Shown here: piece by piece, positions 12,209 through 27,875 of the stretch | Layout: each line of letters starts with the position of its first letter | How positions within the stretch are numbered: the first letter of the stretch is position 1 | IMG/VR virus record: IMGVR_UViG_3300046002_007411 | Coordinates: 47,708 to 111,707 of that record | Strand: one strand, 5' to 3' | Origin: a virus | Length of the DNA: 64,000 nt | Position numbers and translations under genes: made by a program | The notes under the pieces: model-generated | Databases searched by the model: none | Told to the model about the DNA's origin: nothing | The model's input: the letters and a program-made list of their open reading frames with translations, nothing else

Positions 12209-12212
12209 GGAT

Positions 12213-12461
12213 TTACTTCTCTTGATTCTTATATTCGCTAATTTTGCGGGTGAACTTTTTGTCATCATTTGTCAACAACGCACGCTGAAGACGGCGAATC
12301 AAGTCATCTGCTTGATCTTGACTGTAAGTTATACGGATTTGTTCACAAAGATTTGCCATGTTGGCAACTAGATGAATAACACGGTTTTCTATAACACTGT
12401 GTTTGTTGCGGCTGCCAATGTGCCGGTCAAGTTCTTCAAGAATGCTAGATTTAGACTTCAA
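12213..12461 (-). CDS. Small conserved T4-like protein (82 aa), TTG start
   Basis: Helical protein beginning KSKSSILEELDRHIGSRNKH. From memory, similar short proteins with the pattern (S/L)LEELD..., NLxExI...YxxDQADxLxRR, (D)xxKFxRKI occur near DNA metabolism genes of marine T4-like phages. No ATG is available, so a TTG at 12461 preceded by GGGAA is used. The late promoter at 12493-12500 lies in the hairpin just upstream, so it is the first gene of the unit that includes the 367- and 568-aa proteins. Confidence 0.65.
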   Translation of the reverse strand: MKSKSSILEELDRHIGSRNKHSVIENRVIHLVANMANLCEQIRITYSQDQADDLIRRLQRALLTNDDKKFTRKISEYKNQEK

Positions 12462-12464
12462 AAT

Positions 12465-12507
12465 AGTTTCCCATAAGCAAAAACATTTGCTTTATTTATG
12501 GGAAACT
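12465..12507. terminator. Hairpin after gene 41 with a late promoter in its bulge
   Basis: AGTTTCCCATA (12465-12475) pairs with TATGGGAAACT (12497-12507) and AGCAAA with TTTGCT; a five-base bulge (12492-12496) lies on one arm. The bulge creates the late promoter sequence. No strong T-run, so it may process or pause rather than terminate. Confidence 0.6.
12493..12500 (-). promoter_or_regulatory. T4-type late promoter inside a hairpin arm
   Basis: Minus strand reads CATAAATA, upstream of the TTG at 12461. Confidence 0.6.
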
Positions 12508-12518
12508 GATGTAAAAAA

Positions 12519-13916
12519 TTAACGTCGTATCAAGCTTGTTAGCTTGCTGAGATCCTGCATTTTGCTTGCAGCAACTGGTGGTTGAGTATCTGATTTGGGC
12601 GGAGGTTGTGTGCTTTTTCTACGAAGATCAGCCAGCACATCTGTAACCACTCCTGCCTGTGCCTGTTGCACTTGACCTTGATCTTCAAGATCAAATATTT
12701 TCAGTGTTGCTGGATCATAGCCCAAAAACAACTTGCTGCCCACGCCACTGCTGCTACGTGTTTTAATAAACTGGATTTGGTATTGTCCACGTTCTTTCAT
12801 AGCTTGTGTGGCATAGATTGTGATAACATTGTCTGCTGTGTGGATTTTGCTGATACCACCAGCAATCATGCTTTGATCATGTTCCTGCTCGTTGATTGAA
12901 CCGCGATTTAGCTGACTGGCTGTCATGCAAAGTATTTTACGCTCCACAGCCAAGCCGCGAAGCTCTTCGGCAACAAACTTGTCCTTGATAAACAAGTCAC
13001 TGGGATTGATCTTTTTGTTGTTGGGATACAACAAATCCAAATAGTCCACAATCAAGGCGTCTGCTCGCTGCCCGGTTTTAATCTCATATGCCTTGAGATA
13101 GGCTTTGATGTCGTTGGTTGTGCTGCCTTGTGGCATTTGCTTGATGTGAAAAGTTCCTGATGAACGACTGGTTTGCTTGACTTTGATTTCCACGTCATCA
13201 AGTTTACGGAAAATATCAGTAGTTGCTACGCCAGTCAACATGCTGTCCACTCGCATGCTGGTTAGTTCTTCACTGAGCTCGAGACTGATATAAATCACGT
13301 TGAGTTTTTGTTTAACAAAACTCAAACTGAGATTTTGCAAAAACAAACTTTTGCCCACACCGCTGGGTGCAGCCCAAATAGTGATTTCACCACGATTTAC
13401 ACCACCATATAGTTTCTGATCAACAGTTTTCCAGCCTGTGCTTACTTGTCCGTTGTTGCTTTTGATACGATTAAGACGTTCGCGTGGATCGGCAAAGTAA
13501 TCTGTGCCTACATCACTTACCAAACTAATGAGAATGGCATCGCGAACTCGTTTCTCTACTTCACCATAGTTGCCCTTTTCAATAAGATCCACTGCCGATA
13601 ACACAGCTTCAGCCAATGCACGATTTTTACAAAACTCTTCAATTTCCTGCAAAAAGGCTTCAATATGATGTGTGTTGATATCAGGAATCAACTCAAAGTT
13701 ACTTTGAGTCTCAACATTGAGTTGTTGTATTTTTGGTAATGCTTTATGATCATCAACATAGTCCAAAATATACTTGATGGCTTTGCGAAACTTTTGATTC
13801 CAATACTGTGGTTTGAGAATATTCTGACAGCGAATAAAAACTTCCTCACTGCTCATTAATATATCAATCAACAGCTTTTGCTTGGCCTCGCTGTATTCGT
13901 GTTTTTTAGAATCCAT
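12519..13916 (-). CDS. 41: Replicative DNA helicase gp41 (DnaB family)
   Basis: Hexameric 5'-3' helicase that unwinds at the phage fork together with the gp61 primase. The 465-aa length fits T4 gp41. After an N-terminal helical domain, the RecA-like core has the Walker A motif APSGVGKS at 183-190, the B motif hydrophobic stretch ADALIVDYLDLL, a conserved ASQLNRG, and the C-terminal FIKTRSSSGVG. The start overlaps the end of the primase gene by 11 bases, so the two are co-expressed. A hairpin (12465-12507) follows the stop. Confidence 0.95.
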   Translation of the reverse strand: MDSKKHEYSEAKQKLLIDILMSSEEVFIRCQNILKPQYWNQKFRKAIKYILDYVDDHKALPKIQQLNVETQSNFELIPDINTHHIEAFLQEIEEFCKNRALAEAVLSAVDLIEKGNYGEVEKRVRDAILISLVSDVGTDYFADPRERLNRIKSNNGQVSTGWKTVDQKLYGGVNRGEITIWAAPSGVGKSLFLQNLSLSFVKQKLNVIYISLELSEELTSMRVDSMLTGVATTDIFRKLDDVEIKVKQTSRSSGTFHIKQMPQGSTTNDIKAYLKAYEIKTGQRADALIVDYLDLLYPNNKKINPSDLFIKDKFVAEELRGLAVERKILCMTASQLNRGSINEQEHDQSMIAGGISKIHTADNVITIYATQAMKERGQYQIQFIKTRSSSGVGSKLFLGYDPATLKIFDLEDQGQVQQAQAGVVTDVLADLRRKSTQPPPKSDTQPPVAASKMQDLSKLTSLIRR

Positions 13917-14943
13917 TGTTTTTACCCATGGCCTGTCGTAATACGCCTATTTTCAAATCACTTGTAGTGCGAGACTGAATTATGCTTCTTATTGTAAACA
14001 ACTCACCATAACGCTGAGCTGCATCTGCTGCATCTTTGCATGATTTTTCCCATTGTGGGAAACTCACAGCCCAATCCAACTGTAATGCTTGATCAATTAA
14101 GTCTTGATTCTGTTGTTCTTGATCAGGCATTATGATTATTTGTTTGCCAGATTTTTGCAGCTGAGATATTTGCCCTTGACTTAACACATGGCTCATGACA
14201 GCTACACAATCAATACTTATGGCAGTCAAAAGTCCCTCAACTACAATCACAAAGTGTCTGCTATTATACAGCACATGACTGTTGAACAAATAGTCTGTGG
14301 GCAACTTGCTGTTGACATATCTAGGCTGCCCAGCAGGTGGGGTTCCTGCCCATCGCGCACTGTAACCCACTGTGGCTTGTTTGTGATCTTTCATGGGAAC
14401 GAGAACTCTGTGTTTCATTTTCCATCGTCCCCCGTGAGGTGACCAAAAGTATTCACTGTTTCTCATGATACTAGAGCCACGCTGATTGATATAGTGCCAA
14501 GCTTGTAGAAAATCAGGATCTTGATTGTTTTCCTCGACAAGTTTACTCATTAACTGGCTGTTCAAGGGCCAAGCATCAGGTTCAAACTTCACGTCTAACG
14601 TAATGGCCGGAAGAGAATCTGTGCTGGAGCTGCCTTCAAGGCTTTTTTGCAGCTCGTGCATTTTTAAACTGTCAATAATTTCTTGTGGAACAGACATCCA
14701 CGACAGCAGCATGCGAAAACTGTCAGTTAGGCCATCACCTGTATATCTACAACGATATCCACAGTTATAACAACTGTAGGAAACGTGTGATTGTCCATCA
14801 ATCAACCAGTTGCCACGACCACGAGTGTCAGGCCTGTGTCCGCGATGGCTGCAACATACTGCATTTGCACTTTTCCAGCCTTTACTAGCGGTTCTAGCTC
14901 GCGCAGGAATCCATTGACCAACTACATCTGCTACAGATACCAT
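13906..14943 (-). CDS. 61: DNA primase gp61
   Basis: Makes RNA primers for lagging-strand synthesis in complex with gp41. The N-terminal zinc-binding domain has C30/C31 and H33 followed by C58-x2-C61 (SCYNCGYRC). The TOPRIM-type core contains PRYVNSKL, FVIVVEGLLTAIS (the conserved EG) and the acidic IIIMPDQEQQNQD. At 345 aa it matches T4 gp61. Directly upstream of and overlapping gene 41. A TTGACA followed 17 bases later by TAAACC ends just before the ATG, but this overlaps the coding end of the structural gene upstream and may be chance. Confidence 0.92.
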   Translation of the reverse strand: MVSVADVVGQWIPARARTASKGWKSANAVCCSHRGHRPDTRGRGNWLIDGQSHVSYSCYNCGYRCRYTGDGLTDSFRMLLSWMSVPQEIIDSLKMHELQKSLEGSSSTDSLPAITLDVKFEPDAWPLNSQLMSKLVEENNQDPDFLQAWHYINQRGSSIMRNSEYFWSPHGGRWKMKHRVLVPMKDHKQATVGYSARWAGTPPAGQPRYVNSKLPTDYLFNSHVLYNSRHFVIVVEGLLTAISIDCVAVMSHVLSQGQISQLQKSGKQIIIMPDQEQQNQDLIDQALQLDWAVSFPQWEKSCKDAADAAQRYGELFTIRSIIQSRTTSDLKIGVLRQAMGKNNGF

Positions 14944-14951
14944 TACATGGT

Positions 14952-15764
14952 TTAGCTTTTGTAGAGTATTTTGTCAAACGTTCCTGTGTTGCCAAGAGCA
15001 CTTTGATAAACAAAACGCACCCAGTAGAGATTTTGTGTGGTGCTGCCCTGCCATATTGTGGGCTGATCGTCGCCAGTCCATTGTTTGTAGTTGGTGTCAG
15101 CTGTTAGAGGAATGAAAAACCATTCGTTATCTGTGGGCACATTTTCTGTCAAACTGCCTTGCATCCAAAGCTTGCCCAACCAGTTGGTTGTGTAAACCAC
15201 CCATGTATGAGTCCCCGAAGTCTCACCTGTTTGTGCATTGCCAGGTAAACTGGAACTCACGTATAAAATATCAGTCCACCAGTTGAGCGGTGTGGGTGTG
15301 AAGTTAGTGATTACTGTGGCTGGAACAAGTTCACGTTGAGTGCCAGCTAAAATTTCCACTGCCACATCAATGTCTTGATATTGATCACTGTAAAGAAAAC
15401 GTTGCACATTGCTGTCATCAGTGCTGGTAAGCTGAATATTGTAAAATCCCAAAGGCAAAAACTGAATATCAGTTTCTTGTATGTCAACTACAGCTTGGCC
15501 TTGAGCAGCATTGGTAGTTGTGACACTTTTAACCAAAACTGTCTGTTGTGTTTCCACATTAATCATTTGAGCAGTTAGAGTGAGACCGGTAATGTCCACA
15601 GGTCTCCGATCAACATTACGCACCAGCATTTGCAGGGTGTTAGTAACGCCTTTGTATATTTTTTGCTTATATTGAATCATGGGCCATGTCTGCAGGAAAG
15701 TTCCAGGTGCATCATACATCCAATATAGCTGTTGTTGATAAGAATAAAGGGTAATAGTGGACAT
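14952..15764 (-). CDS. Virion structural protein with BppU-like N-terminal domain (270 aa)
   Basis: Beta-rich. Residues about 38-130 look like the N-terminal domain of baseplate upper proteins (BppU type): VRNVDRRPVDITGLTLTAQM, then VVDIQETD, PLGFYNIQLTSTDD. The second half is Trp-rich and resembles adhesin-like beta domains (NWWTDILYVSS, TNLYWVRFVYQS-like ending). It has its own GCTAAATA late promoter (15797-15804), so it is expressed late although it sits beside the replication genes. A baseplate or fibre role is inferred, not certain. Confidence 0.65.
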   Translation of the reverse strand: MSTITLYSYQQQLYWMYDAPGTFLQTWPMIQYKQKIYKGVTNTLQMLVRNVDRRPVDITGLTLTAQMINVETQQTVLVKSVTTTNAAQGQAVVDIQETDIQFLPLGFYNIQLTSTDDSNVQRFLYSDQYQDIDVAVEILAGTQRELVPATVITNFTPTPLNWWTDILYVSSSLPGNAQTGETSGTHTWVVYTTNWLGKLWMQGSLTENVPTDNEWFFIPLTADTNYKQWTGDDQPTIWQGSTTQNLYWVRFVYQSALGNTGTFDKILYKS

Positions 15765-15796
15765 ATCATGAATAAAATAGTGATTAATCTAATAAG

Positions 15797-15804
15797 TATT
15801 TAGC
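15797..15804 (-). promoter_or_regulatory. T4-type late promoter
   Basis: Minus strand reads GCTAAATA, 33 bases upstream of the ATG at 15764. Confidence 0.6.
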
Positions 15805-15827
15805 TGAACTGTTACAAGGAAACTGCT

Positions 15828-16202
15828 ATGACACCACAGGAACTAACCGACTTGCAACAAAGATATCCCTTTCTCAGTGTAGTGCAATATCTCAACAACG
15901 AGTATCTAGGAATCATTCAACAAGCTGATCAACAGTTTATCAACATTTATGCTTGGGATGACAACTGGACTGATGTTCGCAAGAAAAGGTTTCTAGTTTG
16001 TGGTGAAACTTGGTGGTGGGAAAGCAACAGAAATATCCCCATAAATTTGTTTATGGGGCAAGACTTTCAAGAGTTTAGAACCGTATTAAAAACTTTTGCA
16101 AGCAAAGAAAGTCGTGTAGTTCAAGGTCCCACAGTAAATCTACGTGAAATGTTAAACAAACGAGTAAAACGACGCACCATTACTTTGGTGCGCGAAGTTT
16201 AA
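15828..16202 (+). CDS. Conserved marine T4-like protein of unknown function (124 aa)
   Basis: Compact, Trp-rich protein. The block RFLVCGETWWWESNRNIPINLF is, from memory, a hallmark of a conserved protein of marine T4-like phages that lies near replication genes; no function is established. The C-terminus is basic (NKRVKRRTITLVREV). The ATG at 15828 follows AAGGAA at eight bases. It is on the plus strand, divergent from the structural gene, and its TAA overlaps the stop of the opposing gene within the four bases TTAA (16199-16202). Confidence 0.7.
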   Translation: MTPQELTDLQQRYPFLSVVQYLNNEYLGIIQQADQQFINIYAWDDNWTDVRKKRFLVCGETWWWESNRNIPINLFMGQDFQEFRTVLKTFASKESRVVQGPTVNLREMLNKRVKRRTITLVREV

Positions 16203-16648
16203 TCGCCTAGAGTACTAACTTTCACTCTCACTTTTACAGTTTTACCATCAGCACTGACTTTTGGTTCAAACTTAACACGCTGTTCTCTTAGATATTGAGT
16301 TTCTTCTTGTCGACTCCACTTTTGCCAGTGCTGCATGGTTTTCCATGCAAGCGTGCGGGCCACCAGTTCATTGTTTACAGCCAAAATAGCATAAAAATCA
16401 TCACTGTTTTCCACGGCACGCAAGCGCACACTGAACTGGTCGCTTGCATGCTCGAGACTTACGAGAATATCTCGCAGTTCACGTGGCTGGCAACGTGGAT
16501 TGCGCCACATCCAAACATCACCATGCAAGCGTTGACGAAACTTACCTGCAAGTTCTGCGTCTTCAATATATCCCAAATCCCAAGTGTTGTCTTCATGCAC
16601 CACATGGGCATGACATCCAAACATTGAACTGGCTAGCTGTAGCTGCAT
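16199..16648 (-). CDS. Unknown protein (149 aa), last gene of early operon
   Basis: Not recognised. N-terminal segment LASSMFGCHAHVVHEDNTWDLGYIED, a Trp-rich middle (DVWMWRNPRC, WKTMQHWQKW) and a basic beta-rich tail (KTVKVRVKVSTLGD). GAGAGGT lies nine bases before the ATG. It follows the DnaE-like gene by 24 bases in the same direction and probably ends the operon that starts at 20176. Confidence 0.68.
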   Translation of the reverse strand: MQLQLASSMFGCHAHVVHEDNTWDLGYIEDAELAGKFRQRLHGDVWMWRNPRCQPRELRDILVSLEHASDQFSVRLRAVENSDDFYAILAVNNELVARTLAWKTMQHWQKWSRQEETQYLREQRVKFEPKVSADGKTVKVRVKVSTLGD

Positions 16649-16672
16649 GATTATACCTCTCTATGTGTTATA

Positions 16673-17263
16673 TTATAATGATTGTGAAACTTCGTCAACG
16701 ATTATTTCTGCATGAACCTTCACCAACATGGCATAACCAAAACTATGAGATTTCCTAAAATGGTAACCTTGGTCACTGCGCTGCCAAATGTCGGGATCAG
16801 CACTAGACAGCCCATGTTCCAAACAACGATTGATAAGCCATTGTTTACCGGGTCTAATCAACGCCAAAATGATAGCAATGTCTTCTAGACTTTTAGGGGC
16901 CAATCGTGCTGTTAAATCAGCATGATTGTGAAGATGGATCAGTTGTGCAACAAACTCAGGATAAGTCATTAACTGCCAGTTGAAATCACGATCACATAGT
17001 TCTTGCAAATGCGCAGGACTGCGGACCTTCTCGTAGACGTTTACATTGAGTATGTCAATTTTGAACAATCCCTGTTGCTGAGCTTGCTTGTAGGGCAAGC
17101 TGCAATAACCAGTAACAGGATCTTGAGGTACATTGTGGAAATACACCCCGGTGTTGTGTTTTTCCAAGCGATCATTTCTAAGCAAGCTAGCAGGAATATG
17201 TTTGATGTCTGCTAGGGCTTGCTCTCTGGCGGCCACGTCAATGTCGATATCAAAATCTATCAT
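16673..17263 (-). CDS. Miniature DnaE-like (DNA polymerase III alpha) protein
   Basis: A 196-aa protein collinear with the catalytic core of C-family DNA polymerases, yet about one sixth of the size of DnaE. Motifs in order: DFDIDID at 3-9 (DnaE PDFDVDF, two catalytic Asp), KHNTG at 35-39 (DnaE KHAGG), GLFKIDIL at 65-72 with D70 matching the third catalytic Asp (DnaE GLVKFDFL), LEDIAIILALIRPG at 126-139, and RKSHSFGYAML at 170-180 (DnaE NKSHSAAYALV). From memory, similar short proteins are encoded by other marine T4-like phages without assigned function. It overlaps the upstream gene by four bases in an early operon beside probable gp62. Whether it polymerises DNA or is a relic used as a regulator is unknown. 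Confidence 0.7.
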   Translation of the reverse strand: MIDFDIDIDVAAREQALADIKHIPASLLRNDRLEKHNTGVYFHNVPQDPVTGYCSLPYKQAQQQGLFKIDILNVNVYEKVRSPAHLQELCDRDFNWQLMTYPEFVAQLIHLHNHADLTARLAPKSLEDIAIILALIRPGKQWLINRCLEHGLSSADPDIWQRSDQGYHFRKSHSFGYAMLVKVHAEIIVDEVSQSL

Positions 17264-17607
17264 GTTCTCTGACGTAACCGGGTGTTTAACTGACTGAGTC
17301 GGGACATGATTTCTCTGTGTTCCTGTTGCATCTTGGTCATTTGGGTTTTTAAATCTTGATTTTCTCGCACCAACTGTTGAATCACCTGTTCACCGGGAAC
17401 ACGTTGCCGGTTACCTTGTTGGTCTGATACTACTACCCAGGCCCCCTCAATCTGCCAATCAGAAGTCTTTTTTGTCAAGGGCAGACTGTTGCTGTCATCG
17501 CTATCGTTGCTATATTGTCCGCCAAACTGTATTTGCTCAACTACCCGGGGTTCAGCTTTAATGGGAATATTCCAGATTTCTTGGGGCTCTACTAAAAACT
17601 TTTTCAT
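17260..17607 (-). CDS. Small coiled-coil protein (115 aa)
   Basis: N-terminal segment MKKFLVEPQEIWNIPIKA, an acidic Ser/Asp stretch (residues 33-40), then a Trp-containing strand (GAWVVVSDQQGNRQRVPGEQ) and a C-terminal coiled coil (LVRENQDLKTQMTKMQQEHR) of about 35 residues. Overlaps the DnaE-like gene by ATGA and the zinc-finger gene by one base, so the three are translated together. It may be a partner of either neighbour; this is inference. Confidence 0.68.
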   Translation of the reverse strand: MKKFLVEPQEIWNIPIKAEPRVVEQIQFGGQYSNDSDDSNSLPLTKKTSDWQIEGAWVVVSDQQGNRQRVPGEQVIQQLVRENQDLKTQMTKMQQEHREIMSRLSQLNTRLRQRT

Positions 17608-18284
17608 TACATTCCTGCTTGTGCTAACATCTCACGGGCAAAATCTGCATCTTGTGGATGGCTTTTGAACTTGAGTTTCCACACATGAGCAGGAGCCCAG
17701 TTTTGTATCATGGACACTTGTTCATGGCTACAGCGTTGCAAAAACTCTGCACTGCTGTCGGCATTGTATATCAACCAAGGACTGATTCTGCCATGACAAA
17801 TGATTTGTGTGCCCATATTGGTATTTACCATACGAAAAAATTCGCACCAAGCTGTGTCATTTTGTTGCGCCCATTTGGCAAGATATTCCACGCTGCGAGC
17901 AAGAGCTTGATCACAATTTTCCGTTGCAATCAAGTCATGTACATACAACACCAGCAAGCTTTCTTGACACCATTTATCCACAGGTATATTGCTGCGAATA
18001 ACAAAATCAATAAATGCCCGGGGAGCTACAACATCGTTTTCAATAACATAAGTGGAAAACTTGTTGAAAGCTCCATAAAATGCACTGGAAATAAAATCTT
18101 CCTGTGTGACTTTTTTCATGTTACGCATGCCACTAAGCTCATGAAATCTCTGCCAACTGTAAAACGCCAAGCGACCTTGAGCTGTGTCTCGGTTAAACCA
18201 ACGTCTTTTCTTTTCACAACTGTGATTATACCAAGTTTTTTCTTTTGCAAAAAATCTTTTGCAAAACTCGCATACAAAAGTCAT
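17607..18284 (-). CDS. CCHC-type zinc-finger protein, early operon (225 aa)
   Basis: The N-terminus holds a single zinc finger: C5-x2-C8, then H21 and C23 (CEFCKRFFAKEKTW, NHSCEKKRRW). The remaining 200 residues are helical with Trp and aromatic residues (RLAFYSWQRFHEL, AFYGAFNKFSTYV, WAPAHVWKLKF). From memory, a similar finger protein accompanies the DnaE-like gene in marine T4-like phages. Nucleic acid binding is likely; the role is not known. Overlaps the probable gp62 gene by ATGA. Confidence 0.68.
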   Translation of the reverse strand: MTFVCEFCKRFFAKEKTWYNHSCEKKRRWFNRDTAQGRLAFYSWQRFHELSGMRNMKKVTQEDFISSAFYGAFNKFSTYVIENDVVAPRAFIDFVIRSNIPVDKWCQESLLVLYVHDLIATENCDQALARSVEYLAKWAQQNDTAWCEFFRMVNTNMGTQIICHGRISPWLIYNADSSAEFLQRCSHEQVSMIQNWAPAHVWKLKFKSHPQDADFAREMLAQAGM

Positions 18285-18769
18285 TTTGCACTGTGGAGTT
18301 TGACTAGCTCTTGAACTTTATTTTCTGCATAACCACTAGCAACTGCTAAGTCAATCACCTGCTGCTGCGTGATAGTTGCCAGCATGATTGACAGTTCTTG
18401 ACTGTTGAGTTGAGGATAATAGTTTTGTATAAGTTCCACAATGGGATTGTCGCGTCGTTTTTTTGCTCGTGCAACTGGTATCCAGGGATGAAACTGTTTG
18501 CTGCCAGCACCTGCACAACATAGCAATAGATGCTGTAGTTCAGCATGATCCCTCAAGTCACTGAATCCAATATTGACCAGATCATTTACTGCCAAAATAG
18601 CATAAGATTGTAAAGCACTGTTGTTGGCCAAACTACTGAGATAACGCATGATCACAAAAGGACTATAAGCTCGGCGTTCTTGTTCAGTTAGTTGGCTGTA
18701 ATAGTCAAGCTTTTGTGTATCAATAGCACTTAATACCTGTTTGATATCCAATGCATATTCTTTAGCCAT
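18281..18769 (-). CDS. 62: Probable sliding clamp loader small subunit gp62
   Basis: A 162-aa helical protein. The pattern MAKEYALDIKQVLSAI, SPFVIMRYLSSLANN, ILAVNDLVNIGFSD, HAELQHLLLCCAG, FHPWIPVARAKKRRDNPIVELIQNYY and the ending helix fits the organisation of gp62 (compare PFMVNRGLS, MN, HLxYLMxxVxxGxRxxxW of known members). gp62 works with gp44 to load the gp45 clamp; neither partner is in this window. The ATG at 18769 lies inside the last codons of the methyltransferase gene (8-base overlap). The length (162 aa) is below the 187 aa of T4 gp62. Assignment is moderate because sequence identity is low. Confidence 0.55.
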   Translation of the reverse strand: MAKEYALDIKQVLSAIDTQKLDYYSQLTEQERRAYSPFVIMRYLSSLANNSALQSYAILAVNDLVNIGFSDLRDHAELQHLLLCCAGAGSKQFHPWIPVARAKKRRDNPIVELIQNYYPQLNSQELSIMLATITQQQVIDLAVASGYAENKVQELVKLHSAK

Positions 18770-19646
18770 GTGATGACTCCTGATAAAACAAACTACTGTT
18801 TGGCGCCGCGACAAGATTGCGAAAAATCAACACTTCCATGGCTTTCTTGGCTTCAAAGCCTGTTTGTGTTTTTTTACGACGCCCTGCTGTATATGTCACA
18901 GGTATTTTTACCACGTGCGCTTGCACTTTGTCAAAGAATCCGTCGCCGCTATCACGATTGCACAACCAAAAATTATCATTTTGTTCCACAGTTTTTACAA
19001 GCTTTTCCAGCTCAATATCTGGAAATGGTTGATTGTAATCAGCAAAACTATCGCGATAGGGAGGATCACAAAACACAAAGTCACAAATAGGAACTTGGCT
19101 CCAATCACCTGACGTAATATGAACTTGTCGTTGTGTTAATGCATCGTGCCATGCTTGCAAGTTATCGGGATCATATACTTGAGTTTCTGTAAGCAAGCCA
19201 CAAGGCGTGCCATAGCGATTGTTGGTGTTTTTGTTGATTTGCCAAATGCCGTTAAATCCTGTGCGCATGAGAAAATACAACACAGCAGCTTGCTGAGTTT
19301 TTGACCACTTTTCCCAATCCCATGCATGTTCTTCACGAACTTTATAATAATATGCACGGCGCTGGTCATAGTTGCCTTGCAGATATTCCTGACTATGCTG
19401 TTGTAAACAATCGCAAAAATCTTGGAAATCGCTAACAATACTCTGATAGATGTTGATTATGTCGCTGTTGATATCGTTAATCCAGACTTCCTGTGGATTG
19501 TATTTTTCAATCACATGAGCAAACATAGCCCCGCCACCAAAAAATGGCTCACTGTAAGTCTTGATAGGAGCAGCTGGCATATAAGGTTGGTAGTATTTGA
19601 GCATTTTGCTCTTGCCACCAGCCCATTTAAACAATGGTTTAATCAA
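18762..19646 (-). CDS. dam: DNA adenine N6-methyltransferase, D12 (Dam) class
   Basis: Transfers methyl groups from SAM to adenine N6 in DNA. The D12 class motifs are complete: FKWAGGKS at 6-13 (SAM site), EPFFGGGAMF at 33-42, and the catalytic DPPY at 194-197. Length 294 aa is usual for Dam/DpnIIA enzymes. The start is a TTG at 19646, since no ATG precedes FKWAGGKS; it overlaps the stop of the nuclease gene as TTGA. Target sequence cannot be read from the protein; GATC is typical for Dam, but many restriction-partner enzymes share this class. Its coupling to an EcoRI-like nuclease suggests it protects phage DNA. Confidence 0.92.
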   Translation of the reverse strand: MIKPLFKWAGGKSKMLKYYQPYMPAAPIKTYSEPFFGGGAMFAHVIEKYNPQEVWINDINSDIINIYQSIVSDFQDFCDCLQQHSQEYLQGNYDQRRAYYYKVREEHAWDWEKWSKTQQAAVLYFLMRTGFNGIWQINKNTNNRYGTPCGLLTETQVYDPDNLQAWHDALTQRQVHITSGDWSQVPICDFVFCDPPYRDSFADYNQPFPDIELEKLVKTVEQNDNFWLCNRDSGDGFFDKVQAHVVKIPVTYTAGRRKKTQTGFEAKKAMEVLIFRNLVAAPNSSLFYQESSHG

Positions 19647-20176
19647 AGGGTAATCGCCTGTTTCATGATGTTATACAGCTCTTGGTCTGTGAAACCCTGT
19701 TCTTGCCCGTGAAAACTTGTGCCTGTTGCATGAGTTACATTCCAAACAACTGGCTTGCCTTCACAAGCCAAGGCAAAGCTTAACCCTTTATACATGCTAT
19801 TATGCTCTTGAACACCTGGGCCACTGCAAAATGTAACATATCTTGCTTGTGGTGCCAACACATGAGCTATCCAGCGATTCATATACCATCGCTCGTGTGC
19901 GTTGCCCACTGCTCCTTGTTTTTTGCCTTCAAAAATAGCAACGATTTGGTTTTTGCTGTTATACCAAATACCACCATCCGGCTGGCAGCTGGCAAGGCCT
20001 CCGGGAATGTCCCGGGACAAAAACTTATTCACACGTCTGTAACCCTGTGGGGCTAGTTCCTGGGACAAAATCTTGCTAATATGCCGCATTCCGCGATCTA
20101 AAGCATGGCTCTGTGAGTCATATGCAGTAGTGCCTTTTTTGATACCTCCTTGAAATCCGTGGGTTCTCTGGCTCAT
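19643..20176 (-). CDS. EcoRI-like PD-(D/E)XK restriction endonuclease
   Basis: A 177-aa protein whose core matches EcoRI and related nucleases: PDGG with D67 (EcoRI D91), IFEGKKQG with E83 and K85 (EcoRI E111 and K113 in AEAKHQG), then GNAHER with E95 (EcoRI GNAIER, E144), followed by a beta-strand ARYVTFCSGPG (EcoRI FPYVLFLEGSN). It is 100 residues shorter than EcoRI, lacking insertions and much of the C-terminus. It is the first gene of the early operon and overlaps the methyltransferase start. A phage could use such a pair to cut unmodified host or competitor DNA. AAGGAT precedes the ATG at 20176. A non-restriction nuclease of the same fold is the main alternative. Confidence 0.78.
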   Translation of the reverse strand: MSQRTHGFQGGIKKGTTAYDSQSHALDRGMRHISKILSQELAPQGYRRVNKFLSRDIPGGLASCQPDGGIWYNSKNQIVAIFEGKKQGAVGNAHERWYMNRWIAHVLAPQARYVTFCSGPGVQEHNSMYKGLSFALACEGKPVVWNVTHATGTSFHGQEQGFTDQELYNIMKQAITL

Positions 20177-20207
20177 ATAAAATCCTTGGTTCGCATGCTG
20201 TTGTCTT

Positions 20208-20235
20208 ACAATATATACTGTCAGATCAATGTCAA
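20208..20235 (-). promoter_or_regulatory. Sigma70-like promoter for the restriction/gp62/DnaE-like operon
   Basis: On the minus strand TTGACA (20235-20230), a 16-base spacer and TATTGT (20213-20208); an alternative -10, TATATT, has a 14-base spacer. It drives the eight-gene operon ending at 16199. Confidence 0.6.
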
Positions 20236-20245
20236 CATATAAAGC

Positions 20246-20620
20246 ATGGGCCGGCCGTTAAATCCTCGTTATTTTGGTGTTCCACGGGGACAACCTGTGC
20301 TGCTGCCAGTTGTACGCCTACATGACAAAGTTCAAGCTGCATGGATAGTTAATCAAACCAACAAACACAGCTATATTTGTCGACAAACACTGTCAGGTAG
20401 TCAGGGGCTTTGCAAGCTGGCAAACAATCTAGATCACAATGGCAACATGCTCTTGCGATTTCAAGATCCTCATGATCAAATATTTTATTGCAGTAGAATA
20501 ACCAACTTGTTTGTTTGGGATTTCCATGGTCAAAAATATCCCTGGACTTTTCATGCCCATCTTGTAAATCCACAGCAATCTTATGTTTGTATTATTGATG
20601 CTGTAATGAACTATAAATAA
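20246..20620 (+). CDS. Small MGRP-type phage protein (124 aa)
   Basis: Starts MGRPLNPRYFG, a N-terminus shared with the following gene and with virion proteins of marine T4-like phages (from memory). The rest is beta-rich with VRLHDKVQAAWIVNQTNKHSYICR and FVWDFHGQKYPWTFHAHL. No Shine-Dalgarno sequence is visible; a TATAAA ends three bases before the ATG, too close for a standard late promoter. The TATAAATA late promoter of the next gene overlaps its last codons. Probably a short virion protein paralogue. Confidence 0.65.
   Translation: MGRPLNPRYFGVPRGQPVLLPVVRLHDKVQAAWIVNQTNKHSYICRQTLSGSQGLCKLANNLDHNGNMLLRFQDPHDQIFYCSRITNLFVWDFHGQKYPWTFHAHLVNPQQSYVCIIDAVMNYK
20612..20619 (+). promoter_or_regulatory. 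T4-type late promoter, perfect consensus, overlapping a stop codon
   Basis: TATAAATA on the plus strand contains the last sense codons and part of the TAA of the 124-aa gene, 59 bases upstream of the ATG at 20678. Confidence 0.85.
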
Positions 20621-20677
20621 CCCAAACAACTATTATGCGGTCCAACCGCGTAGCCTTGAAAGGCAAAGGAGAAAACA

Positions 20678-21775
20678 ATGGGACGCCCGATTAACAAGAA
20701 GTTTATAGGTAATACTGGTGTTACAGGCCAACAGATAGCTGCAACAGCTTGGATTCCTGGCCAAGGAGCGCCTTATACCGATGCATATATTACTCGACAA
20801 ACAGGCACAGGACGTTATGTCATGCGTGCCAATGCCGGTGTAGCAAGTGGTCAAGTCAGCTTGGTCAATGGTGCCCTTACAACAGCAGGACAAGCAAACA
20901 TCGTGGTTACCCCATGGGGCGCGGGCGGTAGCGGAGCCACAGTGGCAGCACGCCTAGGACTAGGGGCTGTAGCTGTAAACTTGGCTGGAAAAGGTCCTGT
21001 CGGCGATAGTTATTTGCCTAGCGAAAAACTCAGTGTTATTGGCGGGACAAGCACAGCAACTGGCAACGTTACAGTCAATAGTGTTAAAATTGGCAACGTC
21101 ACAACACAAAACGCAGGCACTGGTTACGGTACTAACAGCTACTTGATTTTCAGTGGCACTGATTGGACTACCTCAGGGAATGTTCAAGTAGCAACTATTG
21201 GCGGCGGGGGCGCCATTACGGGATTAACAATAATAAATGCCGGCGTATTTGTGGGCACATCTTTGCCGGGAACTGGCGGTCTTAGTGTTGCACCAACAAG
21301 TGTAATAGGAACACAAGGTAGCAATGCTACATTGAACTTCCGCTTTGATATCAACGGCATTAGTGTAACTGATACTGGTGTTTACAGTGTAATCCCCAGC
21401 AATCCCATAGCCCTTGCTGCCAGTGCAGAAGGTGGTGCAGGAGCAAATGTCAACGTAACTTGGTCCGTTACACAAGTTGCAGTAACTTATGCAGGTGATG
21501 GTCTTTACACCGCAGCAGATGTGGACTTTGAAACAGGCGCAGCAGCAGCTACAGCCACAGTGTCACAGGGTAACATCAGTGCTGTGACCGTTACTGCTGG
21601 TGGAACTTATAGTGCCGTTCCCAACGTTAGCATAAGTGGATCAACATCAAAAGAATATGCTGCTGTTATTTTTGATAACACTGTTAGAACATTTACAAAT
21701 AACAGAACATATGATTGGAAGTTTGAAGGAATACCTTTGACAGCACCTGGCCAAGCAACTATCCAAAGCGACTAA
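20678..21775 (+). CDS. Virion structural protein, MGRP N-terminus (365 aa)
   Basis: Begins MGRPINKKFIGNTG, then a conserved patch (AYITRQTGTGRYVMRA) and a long Gly/Thr/Val/Ala-rich beta-repetitive body with recurring VTVNSV / IGNVTTQNAGTGYG / ITGLTIINAGV units, ending in a compact domain (RTFTNNRTYDWKFEGIPL). This is the make-up of repetitive phage surface proteins. Strong AAGGAG before the ATG, a consensus late promoter and a strong terminator indicate abundant late expression. Homologues are annotated as structural proteins in marine myophages (memory). Exact location in the virion unknown. Confidence 0.72.
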   Translation: MGRPINKKFIGNTGVTGQQIAATAWIPGQGAPYTDAYITRQTGTGRYVMRANAGVASGQVSLVNGALTTAGQANIVVTPWGAGGSGATVAARLGLGAVAVNLAGKGPVGDSYLPSEKLSVIGGTSTATGNVTVNSVKIGNVTTQNAGTGYGTNSYLIFSGTDWTTSGNVQVATIGGGGAITGLTIINAGVFVGTSLPGTGGLSVAPTSVIGTQGSNATLNFRFDINGISVTDTGVYSVIPSNPIALAASAEGGAGANVNVTWSVTQVAVTYAGDGLYTAADVDFETGAAAATATVSQGNISAVTVTAGGTYSAVPNVSISGSTSKEYAAVIFDNTVRTFTNNRTYDWKFEGIPLTAPGQATIQSD

Positions 21776-21791
21776 AGCTTTACTTGTTTTT

Positions 21792-21809
21792 TACTTGTTA
21801 AAACAAGTA
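21792..21809. repeat. Short inverted repeat
   Basis: TACTTGTT and AACAAGTA with a two-base centre, just before the main terminator. Confidence 0.5.
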
Positions 21810-21816
21810 CAGACTC

Positions 21817-21855
21817 CACAATGCCCTGATAGCAATATCAGGGCATTGTGTTTTT
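21817..21855. terminator. Strong bidirectional terminator
   Basis: A perfect 15-bp stem (CACAATGCCCTGATA and its complement) with a GCAA tetraloop and T5 on the plus side, between convergent genes. Confidence 0.92.
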
Positions 21856-22399
21856 AAAACAAATGTTTAATATCTAATACTTCGGGAATTTTAGCTAGGT
21901 CTTTTACAAAAAAAGCACAAGCAGGATCACGTCCATCTTGCAAGGGCACTGCTAAAATATTAGCTGTTTTCAGCTTGGGACAAAACCATTTGACATCAGG
22001 CCAAACATTGATAACGTCCACGGTGTGAAACTTGGGTATATATCCTGTCAAAGGATTAAAACAAAAAGATTGGAAATCTTTGTCCATGAGATACAACAAA
22101 CTGACTATTTCCAAATCACCTATTTCAGGATCTCCAATAACCAAATGCCAATCTAGTGGCATTTGGCATTGATAGGGCCCTATTTGCAAATCCACGCTGG
22201 GTGAAACAAAGCTTTCCAAAAACACCAAGGGATGCCAATAATAGTCAATGTTTTTGTTGTCGCTGTAATCTAACACACAAAAGTTAAGATCCACGCCTTG
22301 GTCAGGTAAGTGGTTGACGTTCAAGCTCTGATTGTCGCTGGTAAGTATTTTCACGCAGTATTTACTGGTGATGTCAGTAGTTTTCCTTGGTAAGTGCAT
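21854..22399 (-). CDS. Conserved T4-like protein next to uvsW (181 aa)
   Basis: From memory this matches a conserved protein of marine T4-like phages: the blocks FLESFVSPSVDLQIGPYQ, QMPLDWHLVIGD, EIVSLLYLMDKDFQSFCFNPL and DVINVWPDVKWFCPKLK are characteristic. No function is known. The ATG at 22399 gives a 26-base overlap with uvsW and has no clear ribosome site; a GTG at 22354 (VKILTSDN) is a possible later start. Co-transcribed with uvsW and closed by the terminator at 21817-21855. Confidence 0.75.
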   Translation of the reverse strand: MHLPRKTTDITSKYCVKILTSDNQSLNVNHLPDQGVDLNFCVLDYSDNKNIDYYWHPLVFLESFVSPSVDLQIGPYQCQMPLDWHLVIGDPEIGDLEIVSLLYLMDKDFQSFCFNPLTGYIPKFHTVDVINVWPDVKWFCPKLKTANILAVPLQDGRDPACAFFVKDLAKIPEVLDIKHLF

Positions 22400-23828
22400 G
22401 AGGATACTGCACTTTTTTATAATGTTGCTGGCGTTTTAGCATGTGCCTATGGCTGAACTTCATTTTACTGCAAATGTCATATATATCGACATGATCTTTA
22501 TCGTCAGCTTTGCGTAACCCTCGACCAATACTTTGGATCACACGCACAAAGCTCTTGCCGGGCTCAATCAACACAAGATTGAAAATGCGATTGATGCTAA
22601 TACCCACAGCAGTTGTGCCATACGTTGCAATCATCACAGCGTTGTCGCTGAGATTGATTTCTTTATAGTGCTCACGCCGATCGGAACTTTTCATTTCTCC
22701 ACTGATAAATGTGCTGTCGGCTATGAGATTATGTAAAGCAGTGCCTGTTGCAATGCGATCTACTAGAACAAGAGTGTTGCCTGTTGCACTGATAGTTTTT
22801 ACAAAATCTGATACCCATTTCAATCTATCATTGTTGGTAAGGAGAAACTTCAGCTCGCTTTGATAGTCTTGGTAAACTTGTGTTTCTTGAGTTTGATGTA
22901 CATGAACTTGACATTGTGCCAAATGCCCGGCATCTTGCAAGTCTCTTGCTTGTAGTTGGCCAATTAAAGGCCCAATGGCTGTAAACAAGCTCATTTGATT
23001 ATACTCAGCTTCAGGCACAGTGCCTGTCAATCCCCAACGAATAGGAATATTGCTGAAAGTTGTGGTTAAGAGTCGATGTAACACTCCTAAATCTTTTACC
23101 CCGTGGCACTCATCCACAATCACAGCCACTTGCTGGTCCAGGAACACTGCCAGCTGATCGTCATCTAGGGCGTCTTTGTTTTTCTTGTCTAGAACATTGA
23201 GACTTTGCCATGTGCAAATAGTATGTTGCCGATCAAACTCCTTGCGATCACCAAATATTACACCAACATTCAAACCCACGTTTTGATAATCTTCCAGTGT
23301 TTGTTCCACAAGATTTTTGTTGGGAACAATCACAATAGTCCTACCAATGTGTTCCACACGTCGACTCAGTGTGGCAGTGACAATGGTTTTTCCCGAGCTA
23401 GTGGGCGCAATAATCAATCCCTGGGGATTGGCAAGACATTCGTTTACCAACTGAACTTGATAATCACGTAGCACAATGGGCTCACCTTGAGCTCGATGCC
23501 CGGGTGGCCACATGCGATCACTTAGATAGGTATCATCAATAGCCGTGAGATCAAGATTATGTTTGTGACGGTCATCCACAATCTCAACATCATACCCTGC
23601 ATCAACCAAAATAGGCAGCAGTTTATCCAAGGCATTGAGATAGGTTTTACCGCCCAGTGTGCAAAAACTTGCACAACCATCCCATCGTCCTAATTTGAAG
23701 GCAGGACTGTATCTAGCGTGTGGCAGAAAATATTTCACAGAGTTAACAAGCTTGCGCCGATCTGTCAGCTCAACTTCCTGAATATGGACGTTGACTTCGT
23801 CCATGATATTAATGACTACAGTGTTCAT
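22374..23828 (-). CDS. uvsW: UvsW-type SF2 DNA helicase
   Basis: RNA-DNA and branched-DNA helicase that, in T4, unwinds R-loops and recombination intermediates and shuts off origin-dependent replication. Motifs: Q-like RDYQ at 121-124, Walker A APTSSGKT at 141-148, IVDECHG with DECH at 239-242, LTGT, and the motif VI QSIGRGLRK. The N-terminal 110 residues contain the UvsW-specific domain (KLGRWDGCASF). Length 484 aa is close to T4 UvsW. I start at the ATG at 23828 (MNTVVINIMDEV), which overlaps the stop of the AAA+ gene as ATGA. Confidence 0.95.
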   Translation of the reverse strand: MNTVVINIMDEVNVHIQEVELTDRRKLVNSVKYFLPHARYSPAFKLGRWDGCASFCTLGGKTYLNALDKLLPILVDAGYDVEIVDDRHKHNLDLTAIDDTYLSDRMWPPGHRAQGEPIVLRDYQVQLVNECLANPQGLIIAPTSSGKTIVTATLSRRVEHIGRTIVIVPNKNLVEQTLEDYQNVGLNVGVIFGDRKEFDRQHTICTWQSLNVLDKKNKDALDDDQLAVFLDQQVAVIVDECHGVKDLGVLHRLLTTTFSNIPIRWGLTGTVPEAEYNQMSLFTAIGPLIGQLQARDLQDAGHLAQCQVHVHQTQETQVYQDYQSELKFLLTNNDRLKWVSDFVKTISATGNTLVLVDRIATGTALHNLIADSTFISGEMKSSDRREHYKEINLSDNAVMIATYGTTAVGISINRIFNLVLIEPGKSFVRVIQSIGRGLRKADDKDHVDIYDICSKMKFSHRHMLKRQQHYKKVQYPHALTKENY

Positions 23829-24847
23829 GTTTTTCTCATGCAGTTTTTCTCGGCAAACTTCTGCCATCGCCCGGGCATGGCAGCACGCAAGTCGGCAATT
23901 TTGGTTACTGTGCGCAGGCTAAGCTCATGCAACCTATGTACGTTGTCTTTTACAAAATCCAAAATTTCCTTTTGCTCATCGTGAGAAAAGTCATAACTGC
24001 CCAAGAGGTTGTGCTTGTTGACTACATTGGTGATATGCAAAAGTTTTTCACGTGTGGTGTTGATGCCCAAATCCATGTAATGGCACCGACTCATGATTGC
24101 AGCAAGATGATTTTGAATCCTGGGGCTGCGAACTTGATCAAACTTGATATTGGTAATAAAAACAATACCACCGCGATATTCAAAACTGTTGGGAATGTCT
24201 TGTTTGACAAGATTTCTGTTTTGGCTGCCCCAGTGAATCATGCGTGTTTTACGACTATCAAGAGCAGCTTTGAGAACGTTCAAGCTGTCATCATCGTATA
24301 GCACACTGTCACAGTCGTCAAACACCAGCACTTGGCCTTCACCGCGATATTCCCAAAGTTTTTCATAAAGGCAAATACCCGACATGTCGCCGTGAATGCA
24401 TTCAAACAAGCTGCGATTTTGCATGGCTTGTTTGATTGCCAGTGCCCGATGCAAGCGATTTTCCACAGTGTGACTTTTGCCAATACCACTGGGACCGCTG
24501 ACTACAAGGCCTTTAACAATGTTGCTGGCAACAGCATCCGTCATTTCACCAAGGATTTCAAAAGTTTCATCAATGTCTTGTTGAATCTCTTGATCTGTTA
24601 GTTGGAGAATATTGGGATCTGTGTCTGCTGCAACAACCACCGGAGCACTCACGGGCTGATAATCATCAGCATGGTCGATGTAAAGACGGTTTTTTCCACG
24701 ACGTAGACCGTCGCTGCCGTTGCCCCAGACAACTAGAAACTTGCCGTTGTGATCGCGTTTGATGCCACCTTGCGTTTCCACTGTGACGTTTTGCACACAA
24801 CTGCCGTTGCCCAGTCTACCTTGTTTAACAAGCACGTAGCTCTTCAT
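23825..24847 (-). CDS. AAA+ ATPase of the recombination cluster
   Basis: A 340-aa protein with an N-terminal beta-domain (1-90) and an ATPase core: Walker A GPSGIGKS at 118-125, Walker B VLVFDDCD with D177/D178, a sensor-1-like VFITNIKF, and the arginine-bearing SPRIQNHLAAIMSRC. From memory a similar ATPase sits in this position in other marine T4-like phages, with no assigned role. It is not gp44, whose sequence pattern differs. The ATG at 24847 is preceded by AAGG; a strong promoter (24876-24903) lies upstream. Coupled to uvsW, so a role in fork or recombination remodelling is likely. Confidence 0.8.
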   Translation of the reverse strand: MKSYVLVKQGRLGNGSCVQNVTVETQGGIKRDHNGKFLVVWGNGSDGLRRGKNRLYIDHADDYQPVSAPVVVAADTDPNILQLTDQEIQQDIDETFEILGEMTDAVASNIVKGLVVSGPSGIGKSHTVENRLHRALAIKQAMQNRSLFECIHGDMSGICLYEKLWEYRGEGQVLVFDDCDSVLYDDDSLNVLKAALDSRKTRMIHWGSQNRNLVKQDIPNSFEYRGGIVFITNIKFDQVRSPRIQNHLAAIMSRCHYMDLGINTTREKLLHITNVVNKHNLLGSYDFSHDEQKEILDFVKDNVHRLHELSLRTVTKIADLRAAMPGRWQKFAEKNCMRKT

Positions 24848-24875
24848 TGTCAACCTTGTTTGCAATTTGACCTTC

Positions 24876-24903
24876 ACTATAACATATGTTTAGGGGTTGT
24901 CAA
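24876..24903 (-). promoter_or_regulatory. Sigma70-like early promoter for the AAA+/uvsW operon
   Basis: On the minus strand TTGACA (24903-24898), a 16-base spacer and TATAGT (24881-24876); the leader of roughly 20-25 nt contains AAGG. Confidence 0.75.
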
Positions 24904-24909
24904 ACAAAA

Positions 24910-25362
24910 TTAAAGTTTGACGTCTTCGATTCCAATACTGCGCAGCTTGACAATATTGTTGATTTGCCAGCTTTTGGCTTCAAATCCCTTCATGAGGCCA
25001 AGATACTTGTTGCGAATTAAAGCAACTTCACAGATTAATGTATTCATATCCACAAGACTGGATTCGCCATCTAGATATTTTTCAATACTGCGATCACTTA
25101 AATCACGATTATAGCGTTCAAGATATTTCCTATACAAGTCACTGCGCATTTTATCATATCGTATATTGATATATTTCAAAATGCTTTCCAAGTCTTGTAG
25201 TTGGGTAAATCTATAAGTTACATGCCCACTTAAATCTTGGGCTGCTTTTTCCAAACTTCCCGAAATACGAGTTTCTTTTTGTGCTTGTTCAAATTCTTGG
25301 CTGTAATACTCCACAGCCAGAGCCACTGAGGCTAAATCTGCAACTACTTGGGTGTAGTACAC
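24910..25362 (-). CDS. uvsY: UvsY recombination mediator
   Basis: Loads UvsX onto gp32-coated single-stranded DNA. The 150-aa helical sequence carries the UvsY pattern: LQDLESILKYINIRYDKMRS, YRKYLERYNRDLSDRSIEKYLDG, EVALIRNKYLGLMKGFEAKSWQ and NNIVKLRSIGIEDVKL. T4 UvsY is 137 aa. The start is a GTG at 25362, six bases after the stop of the 74-aa gene; no ATG is suitably placed. It lies between uvsX and the AAA+/uvsW genes, as expected for the recombination cluster. Confidence 0.88.
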   Translation of the reverse strand: MYYTQVVADLASVALAVEYYSQEFEQAQKETRISGSLEKAAQDLSGHVTYRFTQLQDLESILKYINIRYDKMRSDLYRKYLERYNRDLSDRSIEKYLDGESSLVDMNTLICEVALIRNKYLGLMKGFEAKSWQINNIVKLRSIGIEDVKL

Positions 25363-25368
25363 AGACTT

Positions 25369-25593
25369 TTACTCTTCCCACTCTTCTTCTGACTCTTCTT
25401 GATCTAATTCAAGAACTCCGGCAATAGCCTCATCTAGAGCTTGATCTTCACCGAGAATATCTTCAAACCAAGCTTCATCTGCCCCGGCATCAACAAATGC
25501 AGTGACAAGATCTTCCACAGCTTGGGCTTTTTTATTGGCTGGAACAAACTCTTGAAGCAGGTCCCAAATTTCTAAAACTACACTAGCTTGCAT
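25369..25593 (-). CDS. Small acidic protein upstream of uvsY (74 aa)
   Basis: Starts at the ATG at 25593 (MQASVVLEIWDLL) because GAGGAG lies ten bases upstream; an extended TTG frame is rejected. The pattern LLQEFVPANKKAQAVEDLVTAF...WFEDILGEDQALDEAI and a Glu-rich tail recalls small conserved proteins that neighbour uvsY in marine T4-like phages. No function known. Confidence 0.72.
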   Translation of the reverse strand: MQASVVLEIWDLLQEFVPANKKAQAVEDLVTAFVDAGADEAWFEDILGEDQALDEAIAGVLELDQEESEEEWEE

Positions 25594-25618
25594 GTTTATT
25601 TTGCTCCTCTTAGCTTGC

Positions 25619-25648
25619 AATATATTGTGTTAGTTATTGCTATGTCAA
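25619..25648 (-). promoter_or_regulatory. Sigma70-like promoter for the 74-aa gene and uvsY
   Basis: On the minus strand TTGACA (25648-25643), an 18-base spacer and TATATT (25624-25619). The -35 is embedded in the perfect palindrome at 25640-25670. Confidence 0.55.
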
Positions 25649-25670
25649 CAGTGCCTGGCTGTTGACATAG
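25640..25670. promoter_or_regulatory. Perfect 12-bp palindrome over the uvsY promoter -35
   Basis: CTATGTCAACAG and CTGTTGACATAG around a 7-base centre. There is no T-run, so it reads better as an operator or processing hairpin than as a terminator; each arm contains a TTGACA hexamer. Confidence 0.6.
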
Positions 25671-25679
25671 CCAAACAGT

Positions 25680-26756: not shown

Positions 26757-26778
26757 GTCATATCATCCTTGATAGGTA

Positions 26779-26811
26779 GAGCAAGACTGATATTAACTAT
26801 CAGTCTTGCTC
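26779..26811. other. Intercistronic hairpin between gene 32 and uvsX
   Basis: GAGCAAGACTGATA and its perfect complement with a five-base loop (14 bp). It is not followed by a T-run on either strand, so an attenuator, processing site or mRNA stabiliser is more likely than a full terminator. Confidence 0.75.
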
Positions 26812-26826
26812 AGTTTCCGCTATTGC

Positions 26827-27840: not shown

Positions 27841-27875
27841 TTGTGTGCCTTTCTGTGCCTATAATGTGTTTAGAT

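What the first reader, a model, noticed from the sequence alone, without database searches (positions are those of the whole stretch)
18762..20176. Phage-encoded restriction-modification-like pair: EcoRI-type nuclease coupled to a D12 adenine methyltransferase
The 177-aa protein carries the EcoRI catalytic set in order (PDGG D67; FEGKK E83/K85; GNAHER E95) and overlaps a complete Dam-class methyltransferase (FKWAGGKS, DPPY) by a TTGA junction. A nuclease plus adenine methylase at the head of a T4-like replication operon would let the phage mark its own DNA and cut unmarked host or rival DNA, a job T4 does with endoII/endoIV and base modification. EcoRI's usual partner is not of the D12 class, so this would be an unusual combination. 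The nuclease is about 100 residues shorter than EcoRI.
Basis: partly seen in the sequence, partly recalled or inferred. Interest (0 to 1): 0.85.

Follow-up and report, generated by a model that had tools for sequence, protein, structure and literature searches.

The report
Phage EcoRI-like nuclease aimed at AATT
This bacterial virus, like many ocean viruses of cyanobacteria, carries a miniature relative of the restriction enzyme EcoRI paired with a DNA-marking enzyme, and the viruses that carry it have purged the four-letter sequence AATT from their own genomes, which suggests that the enzyme cuts AATT in DNA that is not theirs.

Summary
Two overlapping genes encode a 177-aa nuclease (20176..19643, -) and a D12 adenine methyltransferase (19646..18762, -). 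The nuclease belongs to phrog_2400 (no function given), is homologous to EcoRI (profile-profile E 1e-9), and has a confident PD-(D/E)XK-type model. It lacks EcoRI's roughly 21-residue segment just before GNAIER. Of 64 distinct phage homologues, 51 have the methyltransferase fused (1), overlapping or adjacent (38), or one gene downstream (12).

The main new result is the predicted site. Phages with the nuclease avoid AATT, the core of EcoRI's GAATTC: median observed/expected 0.42 in 24 records versus 0.87 in 16 without it (p 7e-7), and no other 4-bp palindrome separates them comparably. Host strain does not explain it: among WH7803-hosted phages, two with the nuclease score 0.26-0.28 and six without score 0.71-1.02. 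The window scores 0.43; 50 relatives by UvsX have median 1.01. Two related records with the nuclease but no detectable methyltransferase have no AATT in about 102 kb and 70 kb (300 and 222 expected).

Best reading: a phage-borne, EcoRI-family restriction-modification pair specific for AATT, used against host or rival DNA. Cleavage and methylation remain to be shown.

The parts
19643..20176 (-). EcoRI-family (minimal) PD-(D/E)XK nuclease, 177 aa; D67, E83, K85 catalytic set; G91-N-A-H-E-R96 recognition-helix start
   Evidence: phrog_2400 5e-28; invariant columns; AF2 pLDDT 87.6, pTM 0.83; profile-profile with EcoRI family E 9.9e-10
18762..19646 (-). D12-class N6-adenine DNA methyltransferase, 294 aa, TTG start
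   Evidence: PF02086 8.9e-32; DpnM 2dpm 6e-24; TIGR00571 over cut-off; 51-52% identical to the partner enzymes in S-RIM2 and G008
19643..19646 (-). 4-nt stop/start overlap (TTGA), the same arrangement as in most homologous loci (gap -4); suggests translational coupling
20177..20245 (.). Intergenic gap to a divergent + strand ORF; the pair's promoter should lie here (inference; not tested)
   Evidence: sequence; ORFs
1..64000 (.). Genome-wide depletion of AATT (148 observed, 343 expected), the predicted recognition site of the pair

Best explanation
The two genes are a phage-borne type II restriction-modification pair of the EcoRI family with recognition site AATT. The nuclease reads AATT through the conserved GNA(I/H)ER segment at the N-terminus of its recognition helix and cuts with D67/E83/K85. 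It lacks EcoRI's segment that includes M137-A138-A139, which (from my own knowledge of the EcoRI structure) helps read the outer G:C pair. The D12 methyltransferase methylates the adenine in AATT. During infection, unmethylated DNA (host chromosome, plasmids, competing phages) is cut, while the phage's own DNA is spared by methylation and by evolved scarcity of AATT; some relatives seem to do without the methyltransferase and have removed AATT entirely. Shown by computation: homology to EcoRI, fold class, gene linkage and correlated divergence, AATT avoidance tied to gene presence. Inferred: cleavage, methylation at AATT, and use against host or rival DNA.
For: Homology: A2 profile vs EcoRI family, prob 96.5, E 9.9e-10, PDGG/ExK/GNAIER/YVxF in register; A2 HMM scores EcoRI 20.0 bits and the P. 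marcusii EcoRI-family enzyme 27.8, best of 4000 shuffles 7.7; PF02963 is the Pfam family hit by most members, though weakly. Fold: alpha-beta-beta-beta-alpha-beta order with D67 before one strand, E83/K85 on the next, GNAHER at a helix start; top Foldseek matches include McrC and Hef nucleases. Linkage: 1 fused, 38 overlapping or adjacent and 12 one gene apart, of 64; fusion in L070; Mantel r 0.68, 0/2000 permutations. Site: AATT o/e 0.42 vs 0.87, p 7e-7; next-best palindrome p 0.01, GATC p 0.70; 11 nuclease clusters vs 16 negatives p 2e-5; UvsX relatives of the window phage median 1.01; WH7803-hosted phages 0.26-0.28 vs 0.71-1.02; synonymous-codon null for the window 128 vs 424, z -22; most flanking contexts depleted; zero AATT in G002 and G003, which have nuclease but no detected D12 or N6/N4 methyltransferase.
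Against: No biochemical data. Sequence-only searches do not reach EcoRI from the window protein alone, and EcoRI is not among the top 50 Foldseek hits. Some nuclease-bearing records are only mildly depleted (L096 0.87, G018 0.87, L048/L054 0.76-0.80). Avoidance is correlational: cyanophages also lack CCGG, probably through host enzymes, so an AATT-specific host enzyme in some hosts cannot be fully excluded. A full methyltransferase partner should make avoidance unnecessary; partial avoidance needs incomplete protection. The orphan methyltransferases of S-H34 and ACG-2014f share the Q motif, so that motif does not identify the partner's site.
Confidence: 0.72

Rival explanations
1. The AATT avoidance is imposed by AATT-specific restriction enzymes of the hosts; the phage nuclease is an unrelated accessory nuclease that happens to occur in the same lineages.
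For: Cyanophages also avoid CCGG, AGCT and GGCC and the window phage avoids GTAC, as does L330, in which no nuclease was found; these look host-imposed. Virulent phages are known to lose type II sites (PMC12707154).
Against: Phages hosted by the same strain WH7803 differ by nuclease presence (0.26-0.28 vs 0.71-1.02). The link holds in two phage lineages and over 11 nuclease clusters, for AATT only, and AATT is the core of the site of the homologous enzyme EcoRI.
Confidence: 0.12
2. The pair works mainly in phage-phage competition (superinfection exclusion) or as a selfish module that keeps itself in the phage population, and host DNA breakdown is secondary.
For: The pair moves between lineages (T4-like cyanophages and the jumbo-type window phage), has a natural fusion (L070), and rival phages without it keep normal AATT numbers, so they would be cut.
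Against: A host chromosome would hold many unprotected AATT sites too, so host cleavage is expected unless the timing prevents it. Nothing here separates the two targets.
Confidence: 0.3
3. The nuclease keeps the fold but recognises another site (for example GATC, with the Dam-like methyltransferase making GATC marks), and AATT depletion is coincidental.
For: The methyltransferase passes the Dam-subfamily cut-off (TIGR00571).
Against: GATC is not depleted in relation to nuclease presence (p 0.70). Partner methyltransferases carry Q where aligned GATC enzymes EcoDam and DpnM carry R, and most lack the N-terminal K of EcoDam. AATT is depleted in most flanking contexts.
Confidence: 0.08

Closest known systems
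EcoRI / RsrI / MunI family of type II restriction enzymes (PF02963, PF11407)
   Same: PDGG...ExK active site, GNAIER recognition-helix start, YVxF strand, same order and register
   Different: 177 aa versus 277; lacks the ~21-residue segment before GNAIER; predicted site AATT rather than GAATTC or CAATTG; found here only in phage records (a genome-contig scan with A1 found none)
AATT-cutting restriction enzymes (MluCI, Tsp509I, Sse9I)
   Same: Same predicted site; PMC4081073 names MluCI beside EcoRI and MunI as a possible mosaic
   Different: Cellular enzymes; their sequences were not compared here
EcoRI-family nuclease plus D12 methyltransferase of Paracoccus marcusii plasmid pCP157_17
   Same: The same two protein classes, adjacent (PF02963 2.5e-16, PF02086 2e-18)
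   Different: Bacterial plasmid; 238-aa nuclease; reverse gene order; a different D12 subtype
Chlorella-virus restriction-modification systems (e.g. CviAII)
   Same: Virus-encoded restriction enzyme plus methyltransferase (cited in PMC4081073)
   Different: Viruses of eukaryotic algae; relation of those proteins to this one not tested
T4 endonuclease II/IV with base modification
   Same: Functional analogue: degrade host DNA, spare modified phage DNA (own knowledge)
   Different: Unrelated mechanism: modified cytosine rather than methylated AATT
S-CREM2 gp11 (OR473000), annotated 'restriction endonuclease EcoRI'
   Same: Member of this family already labelled in GenBank
   Different: The S-CREM2 paper does not mention EcoRI; site, partner and avoidance not described there; its methyltransferase is of the orphan S-H34/ACG-2014f type

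Membership tests
EcoRI-family PD-(D/E)XK restriction endonuclease | Catalytic D...ExK in PD-x(n)-ExK spacing | tested here: met
   P66-D67, E83-x-K85 invariant in 44 homologues; aligned with D91, E111, K113
EcoRI-family PD-(D/E)XK restriction endonuclease | GNAIER recognition-helix segment reading AATT | tested here: met
   GNAxER invariant; at a helix N-terminus in the model; EcoRI N141/A142/R145 roles from PMC4081073
EcoRI-family PD-(D/E)XK restriction endonuclease | Match to Pfam PF02963 above the curated cut-off | tested here: not met
   Window protein no hit at E<=1; 6 of 44 members hit weakly, best E 0.027. Homology instead rests on profile-profile comparison
EcoRI-family PD-(D/E)XK restriction endonuclease | PD-(D/E)XK fold | tested here: met
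   AF2 pLDDT 87.6 with core strand/helix order; weak Foldseek matches to McrC and Hef, E 0.03-0.08; no direct superposition on EcoRI possible
Type II restriction-modification system | Nuclease and methyltransferase genetically linked | tested here: met
   51 of 64 distinct loci, incl. one fusion; Mantel r 0.68
Type II restriction-modification system | Both enzymes act on the same site | tested here: inconclusive
   AATT avoidance points to the nuclease's site; the methyltransferase's site is only inferred
Type II restriction-modification system | Site-specific cleavage blocked by methylation | not testable with these tools
   Needs biochemistry
D12 N6-adenine methyltransferase | PF02086 match with FxGxG and DPPY motifs | tested here: met
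   E 8.9e-32 over cut-off; FKWAGGK and DPPY present

The most novel reading that the evidence does not exclude
A phage family has turned a stripped-down EcoRI into a weapon with a 4-bp target and evolved its own genome around it. In some phages the methyltransferase is dispensable because every AATT has been removed, so self/non-self discrimination is written into genome composition rather than into a methyl mark.
Probability: 0.5. Interest if true: 0.85.

Novelty: new variant of a known kind. Interest (0 to 1): 0.76.

Why it matters
Restriction enzymes are read as bacterial defences and are said to occur rarely on bacteriophages (PMC4081073). Here an EcoRI relative with a predicted site is linked to a methyltransferase in many marine phages, including cultured ones (S-RIM2, S-BM1) on a laboratory host, under an unnamed PHROG. 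It offers a concrete, testable way for cyanophages to break down host or rival DNA, a minimal member of a textbook enzyme family, and an example of reading an enzyme's specificity from the composition of the genomes that carry it.

Tried and rejected
Single-sequence Pfam, PDB and NCBIfam searches of the nuclease found no relative, and the A1 profile did not hit EcoRI in the PDB search either. A genome-contig scan with the A1 nuclease profile found no bacterial relative. Foldseek vs PDB gave only generic PD-(D/E)XK nucleases, with small GTPases also scoring, so it does not identify EcoRI. The idea that the Dam-like methyltransferase means a GATC site was rejected: GATC shows no link to the nuclease. 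I first read the invariant Q in the partner methyltransferases (R in EcoDam/DpnM) as a marker of AATT specificity, but orphan methyltransferases of S-H34 and ACG-2014f share it, so it is only weak support. GTAC avoidance in the window is not linked to the nuclease, because L330, with no nuclease found, shares it. Loci lacking an adjacent methyltransferase were first taken as orphans; G008 turned out to hold a partner-type enzyme about 18 kb away. Literature searches for phage-encoded restriction enzymes, AATT avoidance and S-RIM2 gave nothing on this family.

Full report
OBSERVATION. The 177-aa ORF (ATG, 20176..19643, minus) ends 4 nt inside the 294-aa methyltransferase ORF (TTG, 19646..18762, minus). 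The methyltransferase is an ordinary, complete D12 enzyme (PF02086 8.9e-32; DpnM 6e-24). The nuclease matches no Pfam family on its own but is phrog_2400, a phage family without assigned function.

RELATIVES. tblastn finds the nuclease in 65 Synechococcus phage records, nearly all S-RIM2 isolates plus S-BM1 and S-CREM2; in S-CREM2 the gene is annotated 'restriction endonuclease EcoRI'. IMG/VR scans gave many more loci. Among 64 distinct nucleases, the D12 methyltransferase is fused in 1 (L070, one 472-aa frame; a single contig, so an assembly error is possible), overlapping or adjacent in 38, one gene downstream in 12, not seen within reach in 11, and cut by the contig end in 2. Nuclease and methyltransferase distances correlate (Mantel r 0.68, 0 of 2000 permutations). 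One of the 11, G008, has a partner-type methyltransferase about 18 kb away. The window's pair is 36% (nuclease) and 51-52% (methyltransferase) identical to that of S-RIM2 although the phages differ: the window UvsX is 60-68% identical to jumbo phages and about 30% to cyanophages. The pair therefore seems to have moved between lineages as a unit (inference).

FAMILY. Forty-four homologues keep P66-D67, E83-x-K85-K86-Q87, G91-N-A-x-E95-R96-W97, N100 and T115. A profile of these aligned with an EcoRI-family profile gives probability 96.5, E 9.9e-10, with PDGG on PDGG (D91), ExK on E111-x-K113, GNAIER on residues 140-145 and YVTF on YVLF. The EcoRI sequence used was recalled from memory and then verified as identical to PDB 1ckq. 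The same profile scores EcoRI 20.0 bits and a 238-aa EcoRI-family enzyme of Paracoccus marcusii 27.8 bits; the best of 4000 shuffled sequences scores 7.7. AlphaFold2 with 44 sequences gives pLDDT 87.6 and pTM 0.83 with the PD-(D/E)XK element order. Foldseek is weak but includes McrC and Hef nucleases; EcoRI is not in the top 50. The membership claim therefore rests on motif register and profile comparison, not on Pfam, whose cut-off is not met.

SITE. If the nuclease cuts a short site, its phages should be short of that site. In the window, AATT is the most depleted of the sixteen 4-bp palindromes by z-score (148 seen, 343 expected, z -10.5; GATC 248 vs 241). I verified nuclease presence or absence by profile search in 40 phage records and took up to 40 kb from each (104 kb for the window's record). 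AATT observed/expected is 0.42 (median of 24 with nuclease) versus 0.87 (16 without), p 7e-7; no other palindrome comes close. Collapsed to 11 nuclease clusters the difference stays (0.37 vs 0.87, p 2e-5). Controls: (a) same host strain, Synechococcus WH7803: S-RIM2 0.26 and S-BM1 0.28 versus S-RIM8 0.71, S-CAM8 0.89, ACG-2014h 0.92, S-PM2 1.02, S-CAM1 1.01 and S-MbCM100 1.01 (hosts as written in the records); (b) relatives of the window phage: 50 loci with UvsX 65-87% identical, no nuclease found, median 1.01, the two closest 1.14 and 1.26; (c) a null that shuffles synonymous codons within genes: window 128 vs 424, G002 0 vs 126, nuclease-free phages 0.70-0.88; (d) depletion spans most NAATTN contexts, so the site is most likely the plain tetranucleotide. 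Two related records with the nuclease but no detectable D12 or N6/N4 methyltransferase (G002, about 102 kb read; G003, 70 kb read) contain no AATT at all against 300 and 222 expected; both are fragments, so a methyltransferase elsewhere in those genomes cannot be excluded. Records with the methyltransferase range from near zero to mild depletion.

WHY AATT IS PLAUSIBLE. EcoRI reads its inner AATT through N141, A142 and R145 (PMC4081073), which are N92, A93 and R96 here. The ~21 EcoRI residues missing in the phage family include M137-A138-A139, which as far as I know contact the outer G:C pair; losing them would leave AATT (inference).

MECHANISM. Most likely the nuclease cuts unmethylated AATT in host or competing DNA while phage DNA is protected by methylated AATT plus scarcity of the site. 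Homology, linkage, fold class and avoidance are shown computationally; cleavage, methylation at AATT and the biological target are inferred. Host breakdown and rival exclusion cannot be separated here.

KNOWN VERSUS NEW. Type II restriction enzymes rarely occur on bacteriophages (PMC4081073). An EcoRI-family plus D12 pair exists in a bacterium (P. marcusii), and one phage record already carries the EcoRI label, although the S-CREM2 paper does not discuss it. I found no paper describing the family, its partner or its site; the search covered open-licence PMC text only. I rate it a new variant of a known kind.

Noticed in passing
window 1-64000; L330: The window phage strongly avoids GTAC (o/e about 0.3); its UvsX relative L330, with no nuclease found, shares this (0.25), so it probably reflects a host restriction enzyme.
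   Followed up: partly
window 35642-37318 (+): 558-aa ORF of an HNH/homing-endonuclease family (phrog_3339) whose C-terminal part also matches a Mom-like DNA-modification family (phrog_1384, 9e-12).
   Followed up: no
L001:6638-7693 and similar loci: A ~350-aa gene with a DGQH motif (weak DUF6551 match) sits between nuclease and methyltransferase in several S-RIM2-type loci.
   Followed up: partly
L013:2305-4914 (S-CREM2 gp12): Annotated as a virion-associated CRISPR Cas9/Csn1 endonuclease directly upstream of the EcoRI-like gene; annotation not checked.
   Followed up: no
W01-W23 stretches, G002, G003: CCGG is absent or nearly absent from most cyanophage stretches examined, with or without the nuclease; probably host-imposed.
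   Followed up: partly
L143 and L140 records (S-RIM8, S-RIM50): GATC is nearly purged (o/e 0.11-0.13) in these two Neptunevirus phages, unlike other cyanophages.
   Followed up: no
L390, L391 (S-H34, ACG-2014f): Orphan cyanophage methyltransferases share FNGIWQ with the partner enzymes; ACG-2014f is mildly AATT-depleted (0.58) without a nuclease. They might be counter-defence against this nuclease.
   Followed up: no
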